NCBI GenBank assembly: GCA_937926105.1 | Contig: CALANS010000179.1 | Span: 1-10,447 of the forward strand | DNA length: 10,447 nt | From: an uncultured Actinomycetes bacterium | GTDB lineage: Bacteria; Actinomycetota; Actinomycetes; Mycobacteriales; Nakamurellaceae | Direction: 5' to 3' | Shown: piece by piece, positions 205 to 10,447 of the stretch | Layout of the letters: every line of letters starts with the position of its first letter | Position numbering within the stretch: the stretch's first letter is position 1 | The notes under the pieces: model-generated | Seen by the model: only the letters and a program-made list of their open reading frames with translations | Database searches by the model: none | Told to the model about the DNA's origin: nothing | Translations under genes and position numbers: made by a program

Positions 205-400
205 AATGCGGGAGTCGTCCGGCGACGCCGGAACACACTGGTGCGGGTCGTTGAGCCCGGTGAGGCGTATGGCGCGGGGTCTTCGGGTGCCGTTTGATTG
301 CTGCCGTTGAGCGCGTGGGTCTGTGTCCTGGCAGAAGACCTTCCGGACGACGCCGCCGGCCCGATCCCGGGCCTGCGCCGGCTGCAGAAGGGAGCTGGTC
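205..400 (+). ncRNA. Candidate IS110 bridge RNA (seekRNA) region
   Basis: IS110-group elements transcribe a guide RNA from the non-coding DNA upstream of the transposase; it pairs with donor and target DNA. This interval holds a run of hairpins. TCCGGC/GCCGGA spans 218-232. CGGG/CCCG arms lie at 244-247 and 256-259. GGTCT (318-322) pairs with AGACC (336-340) around a 13-nt loop. GGCCC (358-362) pairs with GGGCC (369-373). The 11-mer GGGTCTGTGTC at 317-327, in the 318-340 stem-loop, recurs at 1713-1723 near the right end of the element, as expected for a donor guide. Exact ends are unknown. No second guide (target or right donor) could be matched by eye. Confidence 0.38.
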
Positions 401-403
401 GCG

Positions 404-1645
404 ATGGAAGTGATGTTCGACCGTGTCGCCGGGCTCGATGTCGGCAAGGCGTCGATCACGGCGTGCGTGCGGACCCCCGGCGAGAGTGCGGGTCGGCGGC
501 GGGCGGTGACGCGGGCGTTCTCGACGATGACCCGCTCGTTGGGCGTGATGCGGGACTGGCTGGTGGCCGAGGGCGTGACGATCGCCGCGATCGAGTCGAC
601 CTCGACGTACTGGAAGCCGCCGTTCTACTGCCTGGAAGAGGTCATGGACGTTTGGCTGCTCCACGCGCAGCACATGAAGGCGGTGCCGGGCCGCAAGACC
701 GACGTCAAGGACGCGGAGTGGATCGCGCAACTGCTCGAGCACGGGCTGTTGCGGCCGTCGTTCGTGCCGCCCCCGCCGATCTGCCGGCTTCGGCTGCTGA
801 CCCGCTACCGCGACCAGCTGCTGGCCGACCGGACCCGGGAGATGATCCGGTTGGAACTGATGTTGGAGGACGCCTCCATCAAGCTGTCCGCGGTCGTGTC
901 CAGCCTGAAGACGGTGTCGGCGCGGGCGATGCTCGCGGAGCTGATCGCCGGCGAACGTGACCCGCGCAAGCTCGCCGAGCTGGCGAAGGGAAGGCTGCGC
1001 AGCAAGATCCCGGAACTGGCCGAGGCGCTGACTGGCAGCTTCGATGAGCACCGCGCCCGGCTGGCCGGGTCGATCCTGCGCCGGCTGAACCTGGTCGAGG
1101 CGGCGTTGATCGACCTGGATGACCTGGTCGAGCACGCGACCGAACCGTGGGCGCACCAGATCAGCCTGCTGCAGACCATCCCCGGTGTCGGGCTGAAGGT
1201 CGCGCAGGTCATCATCGCCGAGACCGGCGGTGATATGTCGCGGTTCCCGTCGGCGTCGCATCTGGCAGCGTGGGCCGGCCTGGCACCGGCGATCTCCGAG
1301 TCGGCCGGGAAACGCACCCCGGTCGGGGCCCGGCACGGCAACAAGTGGCTCAACCACATGCTCGCCGAGTCCGCCGGGTCGGTGGGCAGGATGCGGGGCA
1401 AGAACTACCTGGCCGTCCAGCACGCCCGGCTGACCAAGCGGCGCGGACACGGACGGGCCCAGGTCGCGGTCGCGCACTCGATCCTGGTCTCGGCGTACTG
1501 GATGCTCAAACGCGACGAGCCCTACCACGACCTCGGTCCGGACTGGCGCGTCAAACGCGACGCGCAGGCCCACACCCGTCGCCTGGTCACCCAGCTGGAG
1601 CGGCTCGGGCACACCGTCGTCCTGGACCAACCACCGGCCGCCTGA
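404..1645 (+). CDS. IS110-family DEDD transposase/recombinase
   Basis: The 413-residue protein is full length for the family. The N-terminal RuvC-like DEDD domain begins GLDVGK (D12). It continues with AAIEST (E64) and the motif KTDVKDAE, giving D100 and D103, which completes the acidic tetrad. A helical linker follows. The C-terminal Transposase_20 domain starts near LLQTIPGVG and contains AAWAGLAP followed by SESAGK, the region of the catalytic serine, then RHGNKWL. These enzymes recombine DNA at a site specified by a bridge RNA from the element's own flank. I chose the ATG at 404 because AAGGGAG (388-394) lies nine bases upstream and the family homology starts immediately. An in-frame GTG at 323 would add 27 residues read from the bridge-RNA-like region, which is unlikely. 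No frameshift or lost catalytic residue is seen. Confidence 0.95.
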   Translation: MEVMFDRVAGLDVGKASITACVRTPGESAGRRRAVTRAFSTMTRSLGVMRDWLVAEGVTIAAIESTSTYWKPPFYCLEEVMDVWLLHAQHMKAVPGRKTDVKDAEWIAQLLEHGLLRPSFVPPPPICRLRLLTRYRDQLLADRTREMIRLELMLEDASIKLSAVVSSLKTVSARAMLAELIAGERDPRKLAELAKGRLRSKIPELAEALTGSFDEHRARLAGSILRRLNLVEAALIDLDDLVEHATEPWAHQISLLQTIPGVGLKVAQVIIAETGGDMSRFPSASHLAAWAGLAPAISESAGKRTPVGARHGNKWLNHMLAESAGSVGRMRGKNYLAVQHARLTKRRGHGRAQVAVAHSILVSAYWMLKRDEPYHDLGPDWRVKRDAQAHTRRLVTQLERLGHTVVLDQPPAA

Positions 1646-2139: not shown

Positions 2140-3459
2140 ATGACTACGATCTCTCGCCGCCAAGCGCTGTTCGGTGGCCTGGGTTTGGCGGCTACCGCCA
2201 GCCTTGCCGCCTGCTCCACGCAGGGCACAGGTGCCGTAACCAGGACGGTAACCGTTCCTCCGACCACCGACCCCGCCAGCCCGGCCGGACAGACGTCCAG
2301 CCGAGATGCAACCCCGCGTGCCGCCACGGACCCGTCGCGCAGTGGTCCGGTGAGCTCGGTTACGACCGTGCGGATGACAATGAGCCCGCCGGCTGGTGCC
2401 GCCGACGTCGCCCCCGCCGACGCGATCATGGTGACTGTGTTCAACGCCGAAATCGACGAGGTCACGCTTACCGGCGCCGACGGCTCGATCATTCCCGGCA
2501 CGATCGCTGCCGACAAACACACCTGGACCGCGACCGACCGCCCGAAATATGGGGTCAGATACACCCTGACCGGAACCGCCACATCTGCCGACGGCGTGCG
2601 TCAACCAATCGCCGGCGCCTTCACCACCGTTCAACCAAAAGAAACTATGCGGGCAGCGATCCAAATCCCCAACGGCCACACCGTCGGGATCGCGGCTCCG
2701 ATCGTCGTGACCTTCGCCGGGCAGGTCGCCAACAGGCCTGCGGCCGAGAGGAACCTTCATGTCACCGCCATCGACGCCAAAGGCAAACCCGTCCACATCG
2801 AAGGCTCGTGGGGCTGGATGCAAGACGAGGACATCCAAGGGAACGGCACCAAACAATCCCGCGTGCACTTTCGACCTAAGGACTACTGGCCCGCCGGGAC
2901 CAAGGTGCACCTGGAAGCAAATCTGTACGGAGTAAACTACGGCCGCAACTGGGGCCGGGACGACATCTCCCGGGACTTCACTATCGGACCTGCTCTGAAA
3001 GTCGTTGCGAACGTTTCCTCCCACCGCCTCCTCGTCGTAGAAGACGACAAGGTCATCAAGAACTTTCCCGTCTCCTACGGCGTACCAAAATCGGTTGACG
3101 ACGGGCGCACCACGGTCAGCGGAATTCACGTCATCACTGAGAAACTCGACCTCAAAGTCATGTGCAACCCGAAATACGGCTACTGCGGGTTCAAAGCCTA
3201 TTGGGCGGTGCGCATGAACAACAATGGCGAATTCATCCACGCCAACCAGGAAGTCGCTGACAAGGGTCTGCTCGGAAAGGAGAACGTCTCCCACGGCTGC
3301 GTCAACATGAGTTTGAAGGACGCGGAGGCCTTCTACAACATGGTCTACTACGGCGTGCCTGTCGATGTCGAAGACACCGGCGTGCCCATGACACAAGCCG
3401 ACTACATCTGGGACTGGGCTGTCCCCTACAGTCAATGGGAAACTTTCTCCGCCCTGTAA
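2140..3459 (+). CDS. L,D-transpeptidase, Tat-exported lipoprotein
   Basis: The 439-residue protein begins with a twin-arginine signal (SRRQALFGG, R6-R7), a hydrophobic stretch and the lipobox LAAC with Cys25, so it should be a Tat-exported lipoprotein. A Thr/Pro/Ser-rich linker runs to about residue 75. Two Ig-like domains follow (about 80-165 and 170-283), then a YkuD catalytic domain (about 284-412). The catalytic motif is SHGCVN (384-389, nucleophile Cys387) with H367 in FIHAN upstream. This matches the mycobacterial LdtMt2/LppS architecture, which makes 3-3 peptidoglycan cross-links outside the membrane. The family's usual HSAPWS-like segment is replaced here by HANQEV. Two extra cysteines (C342, C349) flank a short loop and could form a disulfide. 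The start at 2140 has AAGGAAG at 2131-2137, close by. By eye the gene is less GC-rich at third codon positions than the genes to its right, suggesting separate origin. It converges on the pseudogene downstream. Confidence 0.92.
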   Translation: MTTISRRQALFGGLGLAATASLAACSTQGTGAVTRTVTVPPTTDPASPAGQTSSRDATPRAATDPSRSGPVSSVTTVRMTMSPPAGAADVAPADAIMVTVFNAEIDEVTLTGADGSIIPGTIAADKHTWTATDRPKYGVRYTLTGTATSADGVRQPIAGAFTTVQPKETMRAAIQIPNGHTVGIAAPIVVTFAGQVANRPAAERNLHVTAIDAKGKPVHIEGSWGWMQDEDIQGNGTKQSRVHFRPKDYWPAGTKVHLEANLYGVNYGRNWGRDDISRDFTIGPALKVVANVSSHRLLVVEDDKVIKNFPVSYGVPKSVDDGRTTVSGIHVITEKLDLKVMCNPKYGYCGFKAYWAVRMNNNGEFIHANQEVADKGLLGKENVSHGCVNMSLKDAEAFYNMVYYGVPVDVEDTGVPMTQADYIWDWAVPYSQWETFSAL

Positions 3460-4581: not shown

Positions 4582-4609
4582 CTTACAGGATACGGTAGGG
4601 GGGTATAGT
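4582..4609 (+). promoter_or_regulatory. Promoter of the copper operon
   Basis: CTTACA (4582-4587), a 16-bp spacer and TATAGT (4604-4609) form a sigma-70-type promoter with a near-consensus -10. Transcription would start near 4616, leaving a leader of about 28 bases before the csoR ATG at 4644. The -10 overlaps the candidate CsoR operator, which fits direct repression. Confidence 0.6.
4590..4607 (+). promoter_or_regulatory. Candidate CsoR operator
   Basis: ATACGGTAGGGGGGTATA contains the ATAC...GTAT dyad and the G-tract typical of CsoR sites (family pattern TATACCCC...GGGGTAT). The right half is well conserved and the left half (GGTA in place of CCCC) is degenerate. It lies across the spacer and -10 of the only promoter seen for csoR-copZ-copA. 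Family knowledge: apo-CsoR binds such sites and Cu(I) releases it. Confidence 0.62.
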
Positions 4610-4643
4610 GTCGGCATTGTTCAAGGACGGGTTGGAGGACAGC

Positions 4644-4952
4644 ATGGGCACGGAGTCTGTGGCGGCTGGACCGCCGAGTTACATCAACCGCAAGGACGAC
4701 TATCTGCGGCGGCTGCGCCGCATCGAGGGTCAAGCCCGGGGGCTGCAGCGCATGGTGCAGGAGGAGCAGTACTGCATCGACATCCTGACTCAGGTGTCGG
4801 CGATGACCAGGGCGTTGCAGGCGGTGTCGCTGGGCCTGCTGGAGGAGCACCTGAGCCACTGCGTCGTCGACGCGGCAGCCAGGGGAGGAGCGGAGGCTCA
4901 GGAGAAGGTCCGGGAGGCCTCGGCCGCGATCGCCCGCCTGGTGCGGGCGTAA
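4644..4952 (+). CDS. csoR: CsoR-type copper-sensing transcriptional repressor
   Basis: The 102-residue all-helical protein of the DUF156/CsoR family carries the Cu(I) ligand set Cys44, His69 and Cys73. The spacing (25 and 4 residues) is identical to C36-H61-C65 of Mycobacterium tuberculosis CsoR. The basic segment YLRRLRRIEGQARGL (20-34) is the family's conserved DNA-contacting helix. I chose the ATG at 4644 because GGAGG (4634-4638) lies five bases upstream. The in-frame GTG at 4608 overlaps the promoter's -10 and would lie upstream of the predicted transcript start. It is the first gene of a copper operon, with its operator directly upstream, so it should be autoregulated. The downstream chaperone and P1B-1 ATPase make copper the likely signal rather than the formaldehyde, nickel or persulfide sensed by relatives. 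Confidence 0.93.
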   Translation: MGTESVAAGPPSYINRKDDYLRRLRRIEGQARGLQRMVQEEQYCIDILTQVSAMTRALQAVSLGLLEEHLSHCVVDAAARGGAEAQEKVREASAAIARLVRA

Positions 4953-5028: not shown

Positions 5029-5246
5029 ATGAACACCAGCACCTACGCGGTTACCGGGATGACGTGTGAGCACTGCGTCCACGCGGTCACCGAGGAGTTG
5101 ACGGCTCTGCCCGGGGTCACCGGGGTGCACGTCGATCTGGCCCCGGGTGGGGCGTCGGCGGTGACGGTGACCAGCGAGGGGCCGCTCGGCGTCGAGGCGG
5201 TCGCGGGAGCCCTGGACGAGGCCGGGGACTATCACCTGGAGATGCG

Positions 5247-5250
<4 letters not shown>
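5029..5250 (+). CDS. copZ: CopZ-like copper chaperone (single HMA domain)
   Basis: The 73-residue protein is one heavy-metal-associated domain with the Cu(I)-binding motif GMTCEHC (Cys13, Cys16) in the usual first loop. It then follows the standard ferredoxin-like pattern, with GVTGVHVDL and a C-terminal strand ending YHLEMR. It has no signal peptide or membrane segment, so it is cytoplasmic. Such chaperones bind Cu(I) and hand it to the cognate ATPase and often to CsoR. GGAAGGA (5014-5020) is a good ribosome binding site. Its last codons overlap the ATPase start (ATGA, 5247-5250), implying translational coupling. The His between the two cysteines (CEHC) occurs in many actinobacterial chaperones. 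Confidence 0.92.
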
Positions 5251-7526
<2,276 letters not shown>

Positions 7527-7620: not shown

Positions 7621-7968
7621 ATGGACGGCTTTGCCGGCATGGTCGCCGCGATCGCGACGGGCCTGGTGGTCGCTGGGATCGTGTGGGCCGCCCACCGGAT
7701 GTCCGCGGTGGGCGGCCGCGCCGAGGTGCCGGCCTTCCTGTCGGGCGAAATCCCGTCGGAGCATGCGCTGTCCCGGTTTCACGTCCGCTGGTATCCGGTG
7801 ACGTTGCTGTTCTTGGCGTTCGACGTGGAGATGCTGTTCATGTACCCGTGGGCGTTGGTCGTCGCCTCCATGGGCGGGGCGGCGGTGACCGAGATGTTCA
7901 TCTTCCTGGCGCTGTTGATGGCCGGGGTCATCTACGCCTGGCGGGAGGGCGCGCTGCGATGGACATGA
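7621..7968 (+). CDS. NuoA-like membrane subunit (complex-I-like)
   Basis: The 115-residue protein has three membrane helices and the NuoA/ND3 core FDVEMLFMYPW (67-77), with Asp68 and Glu70, then EMFIF (91-95) and the C-terminal YAWREGALRW. In complex I, NuoA sits beside NuoH and its first loop shapes the quinone channel. That loop normally carries YECG; here the aligned residues read FLSG (39-42), so both Glu and Cys are gone. I chose the ATG at 7621, with GAGGAAGG at 7602-7609. An upstream TTG (7579) or GTG (7612) would add a short N-terminus with no family match. It begins 94 bases after copA and overlaps the next gene by ten bases. It is probably part of a membrane ion-translocating complex; the lost loop argues against ordinary NADH:quinone chemistry. 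Confidence 0.88.
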   Translation: MDGFAGMVAAIATGLVVAGIVWAAHRMSAVGGRAEVPAFLSGEIPSEHALSRFHVRWYPVTLLFLAFDVEMLFMYPWALVVASMGGAAVTEMFIFLALLMAGVIYAWREGALRWT

Positions 7969-9347
7969 GGCTCGCCGCCCAAGCCCGGCTGGCGCGGTGG
8001 GCGGCGCGCCGGCCGCACGTGCTGCTGGTCACCGCCCCCGGCGGCACCCGGCAGCGGCTGGCAGTCGAGGCACATCTGCCCGTGTCGGGTGGGGTGCTGG
8101 CTCGCAGTCCGGCCGACGCTGACCTGCTCGTGGTGGCCGGCACGCCGTCGACGGAACTGGGCGCGGCGATCGAGCGCGTGTGGGAACAGATTCCGGCGCC
8201 CCGGGCGCGTCTGGCCGTGCTCGATCCGGCGGCGGCCCCGGCTGTCCTTGAGGCGGGAGTGCGCCAGCTGACACAGGGGCCAACACTGGGCGCGCGGTGC
8301 GGCCGGCAGAGCGGCGCCCGGCACGCACCGGGCAACGCGACAGAAGATGGCGAGCACCCGGACCATCGCCCGGGGCACAGTCACACCGCGCCGGATCAGC
8401 ACGGGCACGACGGCGACCACGACGCTGACGCAGCCGGACACGACGACCATGCGAGGCACGGTGATCACACCGCACCCGCGGGGCGGGAGGACGTCGCCGG
8501 GGCGGGCGGGCATGCGGGTGGCGGCGCGGATCACGTCGGGCATGTGGCAGAAGACGGTAATCACGGTGGCCACGGTGGCGGGCATGGGGAGCATGCGGGC
8601 CACGCCGGACACGGCGGGATGCAGATGCCGGGCGGGCTGATGATGGCCGATCGGGCACCGGACCGGGACGGGTTGAAGCTGGACGTGCTGCACGTCCCGC
8701 TGGGCCCGGTGCTGCCGGCGTGGCCGGCCGGTCTGCTCGTGGACACCGAGATGCAGGGCGACGTGCTGCAGTCCGCCTCCGCCCGGGTCTTGACCGCCGC
8801 TGACGGGCTGGGGCCGGGCTTGTGGGCGGATCCGGAGCCGCCGCGCCGCGCCGCCGCCCACCTGGATTCTCTCACGCGGCTGCTGGAGGTGGCCGGTTGG
8901 TCGGCGGCGGCCGCGGAGGCCCGCCGGCTGCGCGACCAACTCCTGGCCAGCGGGTTCGACCCGGGCGGCGCGGCCGCGCGGGGGCGGGCATTTGCCAGGT
9001 TCGCCGGGCGGGTGCGCCGGTCCTGGGGGCTGCGTCGCTGCTTGGCCGGCGTGGGCCAACTGGATGCCCGCGAGGTGGCCCGGCTGGGGCTGTCCGGTCC
9101 GGCGGCCCGCGCGACGGCAGGGGGTGGTGACGCGTGGGCCCGGACGCTGACCTGGCTGTCCGAAACCGCCGCCGCCCTGGACGGCGAGGTGATCGCACCC
9201 GCGGAGACCTCGCGAGGGACACCGGCCGAGGGGTCGGCCGCGTTGCTGCGGGCCGCGACCCGGCTGATGCCGGGCCTGCACGTGGCCGACGCCCGCCTGG
9301 CGGTGGCAAGCCTCGACCCCGATACTGACGAACTGGGGCCGACATGA
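7959..9347 (+). CDS. Fused NuoB-like/NuoD-like protein with a His-rich linker and no Fe-S cysteines
   Basis: The 462-residue protein falls into three parts. Residues 1-107 resemble NuoB: ARSPADADLLVVAG (48-61) and ERVWEQIPAPR (72-82) match the NuoB pattern ASPRQADLMIVAG and RRVYDQMPEP. There is no cysteine in this part, so all four ligands of cluster N2 are missing. Residues 122-218 are a low-complexity Gly/Asp/His segment with 21 histidines, many spaced H-x2-H or H-x3-H, followed by Met221, Met223 and Met228-229. Residues 235-462 resemble a NuoD-type large subunit: LDVLHVPLGP (241-250), WPAGLLVD, then LDSLTRLLEVAGW (302-314), but without the HPSTHG quinone motif. No membrane segment or signal peptide is seen. 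The ATG at 7959 has GGGAGGG at 7943-7949; ATG 7965 is an alternative. It overlaps its neighbours on both sides. Identity of the NuoD-like half is less certain than the NuoB-like half. Function unknown. Confidence 0.75.
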   Translation: MDMRLAAQARLARWAARRPHVLLVTAPGGTRQRLAVEAHLPVSGGVLARSPADADLLVVAGTPSTELGAAIERVWEQIPAPRARLAVLDPAAAPAVLEAGVRQLTQGPTLGARCGRQSGARHAPGNATEDGEHPDHRPGHSHTAPDQHGHDGDHDADAAGHDDHARHGDHTAPAGREDVAGAGGHAGGGADHVGHVAEDGNHGGHGGGHGEHAGHAGHGGMQMPGGLMMADRAPDRDGLKLDVLHVPLGPVLPAWPAGLLVDTEMQGDVLQSASARVLTAADGLGPGLWADPEPPRRAAAHLDSLTRLLEVAGWSAAAAEARRLRDQLLASGFDPGGAAARGRAFARFAGRVRRSWGLRRCLAGVGQLDAREVARLGLSGPAARATAGGGDAWARTLTWLSETAAALDGEVIAPAETSRGTPAEGSAALLRAATRLMPGLHVADARLAVASLDPDTDELGPT

Positions 9348-10285
9348 CCGCCGTGCAGGTAGCGGCGGGATGGTCGGTCGTCGCGGCGGCGCTGATGGTC
9401 ATCGGCGCGGCTGTGGCGGCCGGGGCCCTTGATGCCGCGGTCGATCCGCGCAGCCGCACGGTGTCGCTGTCGGCCCGGCTGCTGCGCCCCGTGTGGGAGA
9501 CCTCGCGGCTGCTGCTGGCCCAGCGCCGGGCCACGACCGCCGCGGATGGGCTGCTCGCGACGGCCGGGTCGGTGCTGCCGCTGCTGATCGCACTCGCGAT
9601 GGTCGCCGTCGTCCCGCTGGGCGATCGTGTGGTGGCCGCACCGACCGTGGGTCTGGTGTGGTTCAACGCGATGGACGTGGTGCTGTGGGTTGCGTGGTGG
9701 CTGGCCGGCTGGGGCCCCAACAGCGTGCATCCGCTGGTGGGCGGGTATCGGTTCCTCGCGCAGGCGTTGGCATATGAGCTGCCGTTGATGTTCGCGCTGA
9801 CCGCGCCGGCGGTCGCGGCCGGGAGCCTGTCGGTGACCGACATCGTCACCGCCCAGAAACAGCTGTGGTTCGTGGCGCAGATGCCGATAGCGGCGGCGGT
9901 GTTCATCGGCGCGGTGGGCGCGTTCAGCCTCTGGGGGCCGTTCGCCCACCCGGCCGGGACGGACATCGCCGGCGGCGTGCTGGCCGAGCAGCCGGGGCCG
10001 GCCCGGCTGCTGGTGCGTCTTGGTCAATACGCCCTGCTGGTGGTCGGGTCGGCGATGGCGGTCGCCCTGTTCTTCGGCGGCGGCGCCGGCCCGGTGCTGG
10101 CGCCGTGGGCATGGACAGTGATCAAGACCGCGGTGATCCTGGCGGCGCTGGTATGGCTGCGCCACCGGATTCCGGTGTGGCGGCCGGAGAAGTTGATGCG
10201 AGCCGCATGGCTGGTTGTGCTACCGGTGACATTGCTGCAGCTGCTGGCCGTGTCGATCCTCGCGGCGGCCGGGGCGGCGGCGTGA
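9344..10285 (+). CDS. NuoH-like membrane subunit (complex-I-like)
   Basis: The 313-residue integral membrane protein has about eight helices and NuoH landmarks: WGPNSVHPLVGGYRFLAQ (123-140), LAYELPL (142-148), PFAHPAGTDIAGGVLAEQPG (199-218), WAWTVIKT (255-262) and RPEKLMRAAWLVVLP (280-294). NuoH anchors the membrane arm of complex I to the quinone-reducing module. The usual early cytoplasmic motif (ERR...ARxQ.RxGPN) is absent; residues 32-48 read DPRSRTVSLSARLLRPV or similar, so the quinone-side loop is not conserved. The ATG overlaps the previous stop (ATGA, 9344-9347) and its own stop overlaps the next GTG (10282-10285), so translation is probably coupled. Hydrogenase-4 subunit D (HycD/HyfC) is a distant alternative, but the sequence is closer to NuoH. 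Confidence 0.85.
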   Translation: MTAVQVAAGWSVVAAALMVIGAAVAAGALDAAVDPRSRTVSLSARLLRPVWETSRLLLAQRRATTAADGLLATAGSVLPLLIALAMVAVVPLGDRVVAAPTVGLVWFNAMDVVLWVAWWLAGWGPNSVHPLVGGYRFLAQALAYELPLMFALTAPAVAAGSLSVTDIVTAQKQLWFVAQMPIAAAVFIGAVGAFSLWGPFAHPAGTDIAGGVLAEQPGPARLLVRLGQYALLVVGSAMAVALFFGGGAGPVLAPWAWTVIKTAVILAALVWLRHRIPVWRPEKLMRAAWLVVLPVTLLQLLAVSILAAAGAAA

Positions 10286-10447
10286 GCGCGGCCGGGATCG
10301 CGGTGTTCGCCGCGCTGGCCGTGATCGCTGTCGCGGCCGGCATCGCGGTCTTCGTGGTTGATTCGATGGCCCGGGCGACCTTCGCGCTGGCCCTGTCGTT
10401 CGTGGCGGTGGGCGGGGAGTTGGTGCTGCTCACTTTGGCCTACCTGG
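10282..10447 (+). CDS. NuoJ-like membrane subunit, N-terminus only
   Basis: Fifty-five codons run from GTG (10282), overlapping the NuoH-like stop, to the window edge. The fragment holds one full membrane helix and most of a second. It ends ATFALALSFVAVGGELVLL, the pattern of NuoJ helix 2 (RNPVxSALxLxLxFxxxAxxYxLL). A NuoI (two 4Fe-4S) gene would normally lie between NuoH and NuoJ but is absent. NuoK is a less likely identity. The operon presumably continues with antiporter-like subunits, which cannot be seen here. Confidence 0.7.
   Translation, partial: MSAAGIAVFAALAVIAVAAGIAVFVVDSMARATFALALSFVAVGGELVLLTLAYL

What the first reader, a model, noticed from the sequence alone, without database searches (positions are those of the whole stretch)
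7621..10447. Complex-I-like operon that has lost its redox and quinone signatures
Three adjacent subunits show the same kind of loss. The NuoB-like domain has no cysteine at the N2 cluster positions, the NuoA-like loop reads FLSG in place of YECG, and the NuoH-like protein lacks the ERR...RxGPN loop. NuoI is missing between the NuoH-like and NuoJ-like genes. The membrane core signatures (FDVE in A, YE/GG/AGG in H) are retained. This suggests an ion-translocating membrane module coupled to something other than electron transfer to quinone. I know of complex-I-derived modules such as Mrp antiporters and membrane-bound hydrogenases, and of partial second nuo clusters in actinobacteria, but no described role for one of this form.
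Basis: partly seen in the sequence, partly recalled or inferred. Interest (0 to 1): 0.88.

Follow-up and report, generated by a model that had tools for sequence, protein, structure and literature searches.

The report
Complex-I-like membrane pump linked to copper
A stripped-down relative of the respiratory proton pump complex I, with its electron-carrying parts gone and metal-binding methionines and histidines in their place, sits inside bacterial copper-resistance gene islands and is probably a copper pump of a kind not described before.

Summary
In 79 actinobacterial loci the cluster reads nuoA–[B/D fusion]–nuoH–J–K–L–M–N as far as the held DNA reaches, with no hit for NuoC, E, F or I in it or its flanks. 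Of 71 fusions aligned, none keeps the N2 cysteine set; the NuoD quinone histidines and the NuoH ERR loop are lost; most proton-channel residues are kept. In the window the genes follow csoR–copZ–copA; relatives lie in copper islands, also in alpha- and gammaproteobacteria. A CsoR/RicR-like box precedes nuoA in 15 of 77 loci (0.9 expected). The B–D linker is His/Met/Asp-rich. Most telling, NuoJ has eleven methionines, a new Glu and a His identical in 196 of 196 family sequences and almost absent from 120 canonical NuoJ. I conclude that this is a complex-I-derived, proton-coupled Cu(I)-handling complex, most likely an exporter; transport and direction are inferred. The gene order is in print as a 'partial NDH-1 operon' credited with marine/osmotic adaptation; the papers I saw do not link it to copper.

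The parts
4590..4606 (.). Candidate copper-repressor box ATACGGTAGGGGGGTAT just upstream of csoR (imperfect palindrome)
   Evidence: Read by eye; the exact and one-mismatch scans found no site in the window, so weak by itself
4608..4952 (+). csoR/ricR-type copper-sensing repressor (start may be the ATG at 4644)
   Evidence: PF02583 E 1.4e-28; NF052430 RicR 139.9 bits, below its cut-off of 175
5029..5250 (+). copZ-like HMA copper chaperone
   Evidence: PF00403 E 3.5e-11; translation
5247..7526 (+). copA-like P1B-type heavy-metal ATPase
   Evidence: TIGR01525 583.7 bits and TIGR01511 521.7 bits, both over cut-off
7621..7968 (+). NuoA-like subunit; keeps FDVE; M71 and M74 in 77 of 77 family rows
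   Evidence: PF00507
7965..8300 (+). NuoB-like domain of the fusion, without N2 cysteines
8310..8627 (+). His/Asp-rich (in relatives His/Met/Asp-rich), predicted disordered linker, putative Cu-binding
8628..9344 (+). Truncated NuoD-like domain without the HPxxHG histidines
9344..10285 (+). NuoH-like subunit; ERR loop deleted; E157 equivalent kept; M149 and M180 in 78 of 78 family rows
   Evidence: PF00146
10282..10447 (+). NuoJ-like subunit, first 55 residues only; the Met-rich TM3 begins just beyond the window and is seen in L001 (2715-3350)

Best explanation
It is a proton-coupled Cu(I) (possibly also Ag(I)) translocating complex derived from the complex I membrane arm. Shown by sequence: the B/D fusion and NuoH have lost the iron-sulfur and quinone residues; the three antiporter-like subunits, NuoK and the charged axis through A and H keep most proton-path residues; NuoJ above all, and NuoK and NuoA, have gained invariant methionines; the B-D linker is His/Met/Asp-rich; the cluster is enriched next to copper genes and behind a copper-repressor-like box. 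Inferred: cytosolic Cu(I), perhaps handed over by CopZ, is caught by the linker, passes the Met/His mouth of NuoJ (M85, M87, M89, H91) into a thioether ladder along TM3 (M79 to M62) and on through J TM5 and K, and leaves on the outside, where multicopper oxidases, frequent neighbours, oxidise it. Proton entry through L, M and N drives the step, coupled through the new J Glu66 and the conserved NuoK glutamates in place of quinone chemistry. Export is the more likely direction.
For: NuoJ M29, 62, 63, 67, 70, 74, 78, 79, 87, 89, 142, E66 and H91 identical in 76 of 76 actinobacterial rows plus 120 of 120 best matches of a Roseivivax NuoJ; in 120 canonical actinobacterial NuoJ the eleven Met columns hold Met in 0 of 120, except column 70 with 2 of 120 (in that realignment M142 reads 74 of 76 in the actinobacterial rows). 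16 of 43 invariant NuoJ columns are Met. Met content is raised in J, K and A, not in H, L, M, N. Five or more His+Met in 68 of 71 linkers. At least one of six copper-gene families in the held flanks of 41 of 79 loci; CsoR-type genes within 15 kb at 10 of 43 copies against 0.95 expected, multicopper oxidases at 11 of 43 against 0.81. TACCC-N5-GGGTA within 400 bases upstream of nuoA in 15 of 77 against 0.94. Copper or heavy-metal efflux genes beside it on 9 of 11 readable plasmid stretches, including alpha- and gammaproteobacteria. Most proton residues kept. One clade apart from canonical and nuo2 in three trees. No NuoC in 15 of 49 host genomes.
Against: No measurement of transport, copper binding or phenotype. 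38 of 79 loci show none of the six copper families in the flanks held, and 62 of 77 have no exact box; of 11 plasmid stretches scanned 3 have it within 400 bases of nuoA (L101, L102, L107), none of the three proteobacterial ones. Three of 71 linkers have fewer than five His+Met (L014, L036, L078). NuoM E144 is D, NuoN E133 and H305 and NuoH E216/E218 are lost, NuoL K169 is mostly T, so coupling differs from complex I. Met-rich helices could be structural. The 120 proteobacterial-type and the 120 canonical NuoJ are each close kin. No multimer model was made, so a continuous ladder through A/H/J/K is not shown. Many islands have a CopA-type ATPase already. NuoJ orientation rests on the positive-inside rule and recall.
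Confidence: 0.6

Rival explanations
1. Copper importer: the same Met-lined path works inward, delivering Cu to cytosolic or membrane acceptors, with the linker as the receiver.
For: The Met/His ladder and linker do not fix a direction; the linker would be on the receiving side.
Against: Neighbours are efflux and detoxification genes (CopA, CopZ, CsoR, MCO, DUF305, CopC/D); a CsoR/RicR-type box would mean induction by copper excess (regulator logic from passages).
Confidence: 0.12
2. Copper-gated or copper-protected ion pump: an Fe-S-free proton or Na+/H+ antiporter that stabilises pH or ion gradients under copper stress; copper binds as a regulator and is not carried.
For: Most L, M, N proton residues are kept; the Fe-S ligands are gone; the linker could be a sensor.
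Against: Eleven identical Met along one transmembrane helix, its mouth and TM5 seem more than a sensor needs.
Confidence: 0.17
3. Marine/osmotic adaptation: an extra partial NDH-1 that maintains the proton or sodium gradient in seawater (published view).
For: Same gene order reported in Salinispora, Kocuria and sponge Streptomyces (passages); many proteobacterial relatives with a name are marine genera (my reading of the names).
Against: Plasmid hosts include sputum, soil, sediment and glacier samples; copper context and Met ladder stay unexplained; the papers themselves list carriers from a copper mine and from copper-rich mine fluid.
Confidence: 0.05
4. Decaying duplicate of complex I.
For: Loss of catalytic residues; one visibly broken copy on a plasmid, L075, and a fusion in two frames in L041.
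Against: Open frames and conserved order in nearly all loci; many invariant columns; newly gained invariant Met in two phyla; presence where no NuoC was found.
Confidence: 0.02

Closest known systems
Respiratory complex I (NDH-1, Nuo)
   Same: NuoA, H, J, K, L, M, N and the folds of NuoB/NuoD; most proton-path residues
   Different: No N2 cysteine set, no NuoC/E/F/I in the locus, NuoD truncated without quinone-site His, NuoH ERR loop deleted, Met-rich NuoJ/K, His/Met linker
Partial second nuo cluster of actinobacteria (called nuo2 here: A-B-C/D-H-I-J-K-L-M-N; L093, L095, L097)
   Same: No hit for the NADH module E/F/G
   Different: Has Cys-bearing NuoB and NuoI; separate clade in three trees
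'Partial 2' NDH-1 operon of Penn and Jensen 2012 and its follow-ups
   Same: Seven membrane nuo genes in scattered actinobacteria with proteobacterial kin (passages); order nuoA, hypothetical, nuoH-J-K-L-M-N (passages)
   Different: Read there as marine adaptation; in the passages seen the hypothetical gene is not identified; the word copper occurs 0 times in the 2012 text
Mrp antiporters, membrane-bound hydrogenases, MBS, Ehr, DAB (recalled)
   Same: Complex-I-type ion-translocating modules coupled to other things
   Different: None known to me has this subunit set with a Cys-free B/D fusion, or carries copper
Cu(I) carriers CTR1, CusA, P1B ATPases (recalled)
   Same: Transmembrane methionines as soft-metal relay
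   Different: Unrelated folds

Membership tests
Respiratory complex I | Four Cys ligands of cluster N2 in NuoB | tested here: not met
   C in 1, 0, 0 and 0 of 71 fusions at the four positions
Respiratory complex I | NuoI, NuoC and NADH module E/F/G in the operon | tested here: not met
   phmmer of E. coli subunits against 79 loci: none for C, E, F, I; one NuoG hit outside the cluster in L037; gene order
Respiratory complex I | Quinone-site residues: NuoD HPxxHG; NuoH ERR loop | tested here: not met
   First His 0 of 71, second 1 of 71; ERR loop gapped in 78 of 78
Respiratory complex I | Proton-channel charged residues in A, H, K, L, M, N | tested here: met
   Most identical in every row; exceptions NuoN E133 and H305, NuoH E216/E218, NuoL K169, NuoM E144 as D, NuoN K217 as K or E
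Actinobacterial nuo2 cluster | Redox-competent NuoB plus NuoI; grouping with nuo2 in trees | tested here: not met
Published partial NDH-1 ('partial 2') operon | Gene order nuoA-hypothetical-nuoH-J-K-L-M-N | tested here: met
   Order equals that in the passages; the Salinispora sequences themselves were not compared
Mrp antiporter | MrpA-G subunit set without NuoA, NuoH, NuoB/D | tested here: not met
   The eight-gene set has A, H and B/D; Mrp subunits were not searched for by profile
Energy-converting hydrogenase / Ehr | Cys-bearing small subunit beside the large subunit | tested here: not met
   Small-subunit-like domain has no cluster cysteine set; NiFe-site cysteines of the large subunit were not tested
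Cu(I) transporter (function) | Cu(I) binding and transport | not testable with these tools
   needs experiment; sequence signs
CsoR/RicR regulon member | Repressor box at the promoter | tested here: inconclusive
   15 of 77 loci; box form recalled, binding not shown; only an imperfect site in the window

The most novel reading that the evidence does not exclude
A new class of metal pump: complex I's membrane arm re-tooled so that Cu(I) moving along a methionine ladder in NuoJ/K/A replaces quinone reduction as the partner reaction of the proton antiporter chain, with a His/Met-rich B/D plug as the metal loader. It spreads as a cassette in copper islands of Actinomycetota and Pseudomonadota.
Probability: 0.5. 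Interest if true: 0.95.

Novelty: new variant of a known kind. Interest (0 to 1): 0.87.

Why it matters
It would add transition-metal transport to what the complex I architecture can do and give a natural test of complex I coupling: a proton-pumping arm whose quinone chemistry is replaced by something that can be titrated, Cu(I). It would also reassign gene clusters now annotated as NADH-quinone oxidoreductase, and credited with marine or osmotic adaptation, to copper handling, and add a component to mobile copper islands.

Tried and rejected

Limits of counts. The 120 proteobacterial-type NuoJ are the best 120 of 1587 matches of one Roseivivax fragment (67-87% identical to it, most without an organism name). 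The 120 canonical NuoJ are the best 120 matches of one Flexivirga protein (64-100% identical). Seven of 78 fusions were left out of the 71-row alignment for length; L001 and L075 were left out of the family sets; two NuoJ rows (L047, L056) and two NuoL rows (L013, L025) were dropped for length. Of 49 genomes, 42 were used for the copper-neighbour test, an arbitrary cut to lessen output; positions were copied by hand into; related genomes are not independent, so its Poisson values overstate certainty. L005 and L006 are near-identical loci counted twice. In one search, 24 of 296 genomes matched; I count 19, because five are 40-residue matches at E ~1e-6 that I take for canonical NuoB; one of the 19 is the query genome; only six candidates per genome were scored. 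The Tyr of the NuoD quinone site falls in a deletion in the alignment but opposite other residues (H, A, Q and others, Tyr not among the six commonest) in that. E. coli NuoJ has a Met opposite M76 or M78, by alignment.
Full report
What is in the window. The stretch 7621-10447 holds a NuoA-like gene, a B/D fusion, a NuoH-like gene and the first 55 residues of a NuoJ-like gene, each overlapping the next. Directly upstream on the same strand lie a CsoR/RicR-type repressor (4608-4952), a CopZ-like chaperone (5029-5250) and a CopA-like P1B ATPase (5247-7526), ending 94 bases before nuoA. The nearest relative, L001 (Nakamurella MAG, NuoH 97% identical), continues J-K-L-M-N and has a multicopper oxidase further on, at 9112-10908.

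One scan of GTDB species genomes with the window NuoH gave 79 loci. phmmer with the window and L001 proteins found the order A-BD-H-J-K-L-M-N in them; L013 and L025 are cut within L, L072 has no A on the held DNA, L041 has the fusion in two frames, L011 matched only in the B part, and L075 is broken. E. coli NuoC, E, F, I and B find nothing in these loci at E 1e-3; NuoG finds one hit in L037, outside the cluster. At the four N2 ligand positions C occurs in 1, 0, 0 and 0 of 71 fusions; of the two NuoD HPxxHG histidines the first is kept in 0 and the second in 1 of 71 (alignment shown). NuoH E36/R37 aligns to a gap in 78 of 78 and NuoJ Y59 is Met in 76 of 76.

What is kept. At E. coli positions: NuoA D79/E81 77 of 77; NuoK E36/E72 78 of 78; NuoL E144, R175, D178, K229, H254, H338, K342, K399 76 of 76; NuoM K234, H241, K265, H322, H348, E407 76 of 76, with E144 as D in 76 of 76; NuoN K158, K247, K395 76 of 76, K217 as K in 55 and E in 21; NuoH E157 78 of 78. 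Lost or changed: NuoN E133 (L in 73 of 76) and H305 (Q in 76 of 76), NuoH E216 (gap) and E218 (G in 70 of 78), NuoL K169 (T in 61 of 76), NuoL H334 (H in 47, Q in 29). Which residues matter is recalled from the complex I literature.

It is a clade of its own and need not depend on complex I. Trees of NuoH, M and L (12 of 79 loci plus the window, with canonical and nuo2 rows) each put the family on one branch with 100/100 support, apart from canonical Nuo and from the redox-competent nuo2 cluster. NuoC was not detected in 15 of 49 host genomes and NuoF not in 2 of 9; drafts may be incomplete. The fusion is found in 19 of 296 genomes of the class, the query genome included, five weak NuoB-like matches set aside. 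A search of 5.8 billion proteins gave 444 relatives of the fusion; of the 120 listed, those that bear a source's name are called hypothetical or uncharacterized.

Copper around it. In the held flanks (at most about 8.6 kb before and 4.5 kb after the cluster) 41 of 79 loci have at least one of CsoR, CopA, multicopper oxidase, DUF305, CopZ or Csp; 38 have none. For two families I have a genome-wide background: within 15 kb of the fusion, CsoR-type genes lie at 10 of 43 copies (0.95 expected) and multicopper oxidases at 11 of 43 (0.81 expected), in 42 of the 49 genomes. Plasmid searches gave 16 records with the window NuoH and five with the Roseivivax NuoH, two of them shared. I opened 12 of these 19. 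Copper or heavy-metal efflux genes are annotated close by in nine: Arthrobacter FB24, pMAH135, Roseivivax, two Pseudonocardia, Curtobacterium, Acuticoccus, Halomonas KO116, M. paragordonae; for pMAH135 and P. autotrophica the labels say heavy metal or metal-sensitive, not copper. None is seen in Rhodococcus DNHP-S2 or Pseudarthrobacter E5; Vreelandella is annotated almost only as hypothetical. The proteobacterial members sit with CueR, a P-type ATPase and multicopper oxidases (Roseivivax, Acuticoccus), or with CopB/C/D, a copper-resistance multicopper oxidase and a two-component system (Halomonas).

Regulation. The palindrome TACCC-N5-GGGTA, the form I recall for RicR, occurs within 400 bases upstream of nuoA in 15 of 77 loci against 0.94 expected from its density in the loci as a whole. 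Eight of these (L015, L020, L025, L037, L043, L045, L054, L066) have no copper gene in the held flanks, which fits control from elsewhere in the genome. Some loci are close kin. Of 11 plasmid stretches scanned, three have it within 400 bases of nuoA (L101, L102, L107; in L102 38 bases before the annotated start); the three proteobacterial ones have none. The window has only an imperfect site, at 4590-4606 before csoR. The M. tuberculosis CsoR box quoted in PMC10141476 is longer and different (passage).

The methionine ladder. Comparing the family with E. coli, three canonical and three nuo2 sets, mean Met content is higher in NuoJ (0.099 against 0.026), NuoK (0.100 against 0.043) and NuoA (0.052 against 0.022), but not in H, L, M or N. 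Of 43 invariant NuoJ columns 16 are Met. Adding 120 proteobacterial-type NuoJ, M29, 62, 63, 67, 70, 74, 78, 79, 87, 89, 142, E66 and H91 are the same in 196 of 196; M76 is Met in 169 of 196; M65, 85, 138, 145 are actinobacterial only. In 120 canonical actinobacterial NuoJ the eleven Met columns hold Met in 0 of 120, except column 70, 2 of 120; M76 is Met in all 120 and is not counted; E66 is Ala in 120 of 120. In that realignment three TM5 columns drop to 74 of 76 in the family, which I take for an effect of trimmed ends. Met is easily replaced by Leu or Ile in membrane helices, so this invariance argues for thioether chemistry, that is, a soft metal. TM3 of NuoJ is, as I recall the complex I literature, the helix beside the channel that joins the quinone cavity to NuoK.

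The linker. Between the B- and D-like parts lies a stretch of median 53 residues (12-183), median 23% His+Met and 27% Asp+Glu, with five or more His+Met in 68 of 71 and an M[DGS]H motif in 49 of 71, often repeats such as MDHGDMDHG. NuoJ of Roseivivax has a long His-rich tail on the presumed cytosolic side, and L001 a short one.

Mechanism. Shown by sequence: loss of redox parts, retention of most proton parts, gain of metal-type ligands, copper context. Inferred: Cu(I) is the transported ion, protons drive it, and it goes out. Export fits the neighbours (CopA, CopZ, multicopper oxidases, CsoR) better than import. A copper-gated ion pump is the main rival. I put 0.6 on a proton-coupled Cu(I) translocator and about 0.9 on a function tied to copper in some way.

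What is in print. Penn and Jensen 2012 (PMC3314556, passages) described a 'partial 2' NDH-1 operon of seven membrane genes in Salinispora, scattered actinobacteria and proteobacteria, as marine adaptation genes; the word copper does not occur in that text. PMC6002675 and PMC6676996 (passages) repeat this for Kocuria and Streptomyces; the former tabulates nuo in a Kocuria from a copper mine, the latter gives the order nuoA, hypothetical protein, nuoH-J-K-L-M-N and mentions a carrier strain from copper-rich mine fluid, read as osmotic stress. I did not compare the Salinispora sequences themselves. In ten full-text searches no listed title or abstract start joined this cluster to copper; several lists were capped (for instance 20 of 249 papers, 12 of 93), and subscription papers are mostly not held.

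Noticed in passing
window 2140-3459: L,D-transpeptidase (YkuD) on the same side of the copper genes; L,D-transpeptidases also stand in the Acuticoccus and Pseudonocardia alni copper islands and upstream of the cluster in L040 and L070. Possibly copper-tolerant cell-wall enzymes.
   Followed up: partly
window 323-1645: IS110-family transposase upstream of the copper genes; an IS110-like ISMav6 also lies about 0.8 kb before nuoA on pMAH135.
   Followed up: no
L093, L095, L097: A second, different partial nuo cluster (A-B-C/D-H-I-J-K-L-M-N, no E/F/G hit) with Cys-bearing NuoB, on the same contig as the canonical nuo operon in some hosts.
   Followed up: partly
L075: Copy on plasmid pINDO-MA30-4 is split over several frames and looks broken.
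   Followed up: no
L005 and L015: Arthrobacter echini carries two copies of the cluster, one with DUF305/CopA neighbours and one without, in a genome with no NuoC hit.
   Followed up: no
L104 11653-12057; L108 9822-10700: A potassium-channel-family gene directly upstream of nuoA in the Acuticoccus and Pseudarthrobacter plasmids.
   Followed up: no
L001 8545-9048; L101 18303-18737: A small protein gene just after nuoN; no Pfam match in L001, annotated DUF6153 in Pseudonocardia.
   Followed up: no
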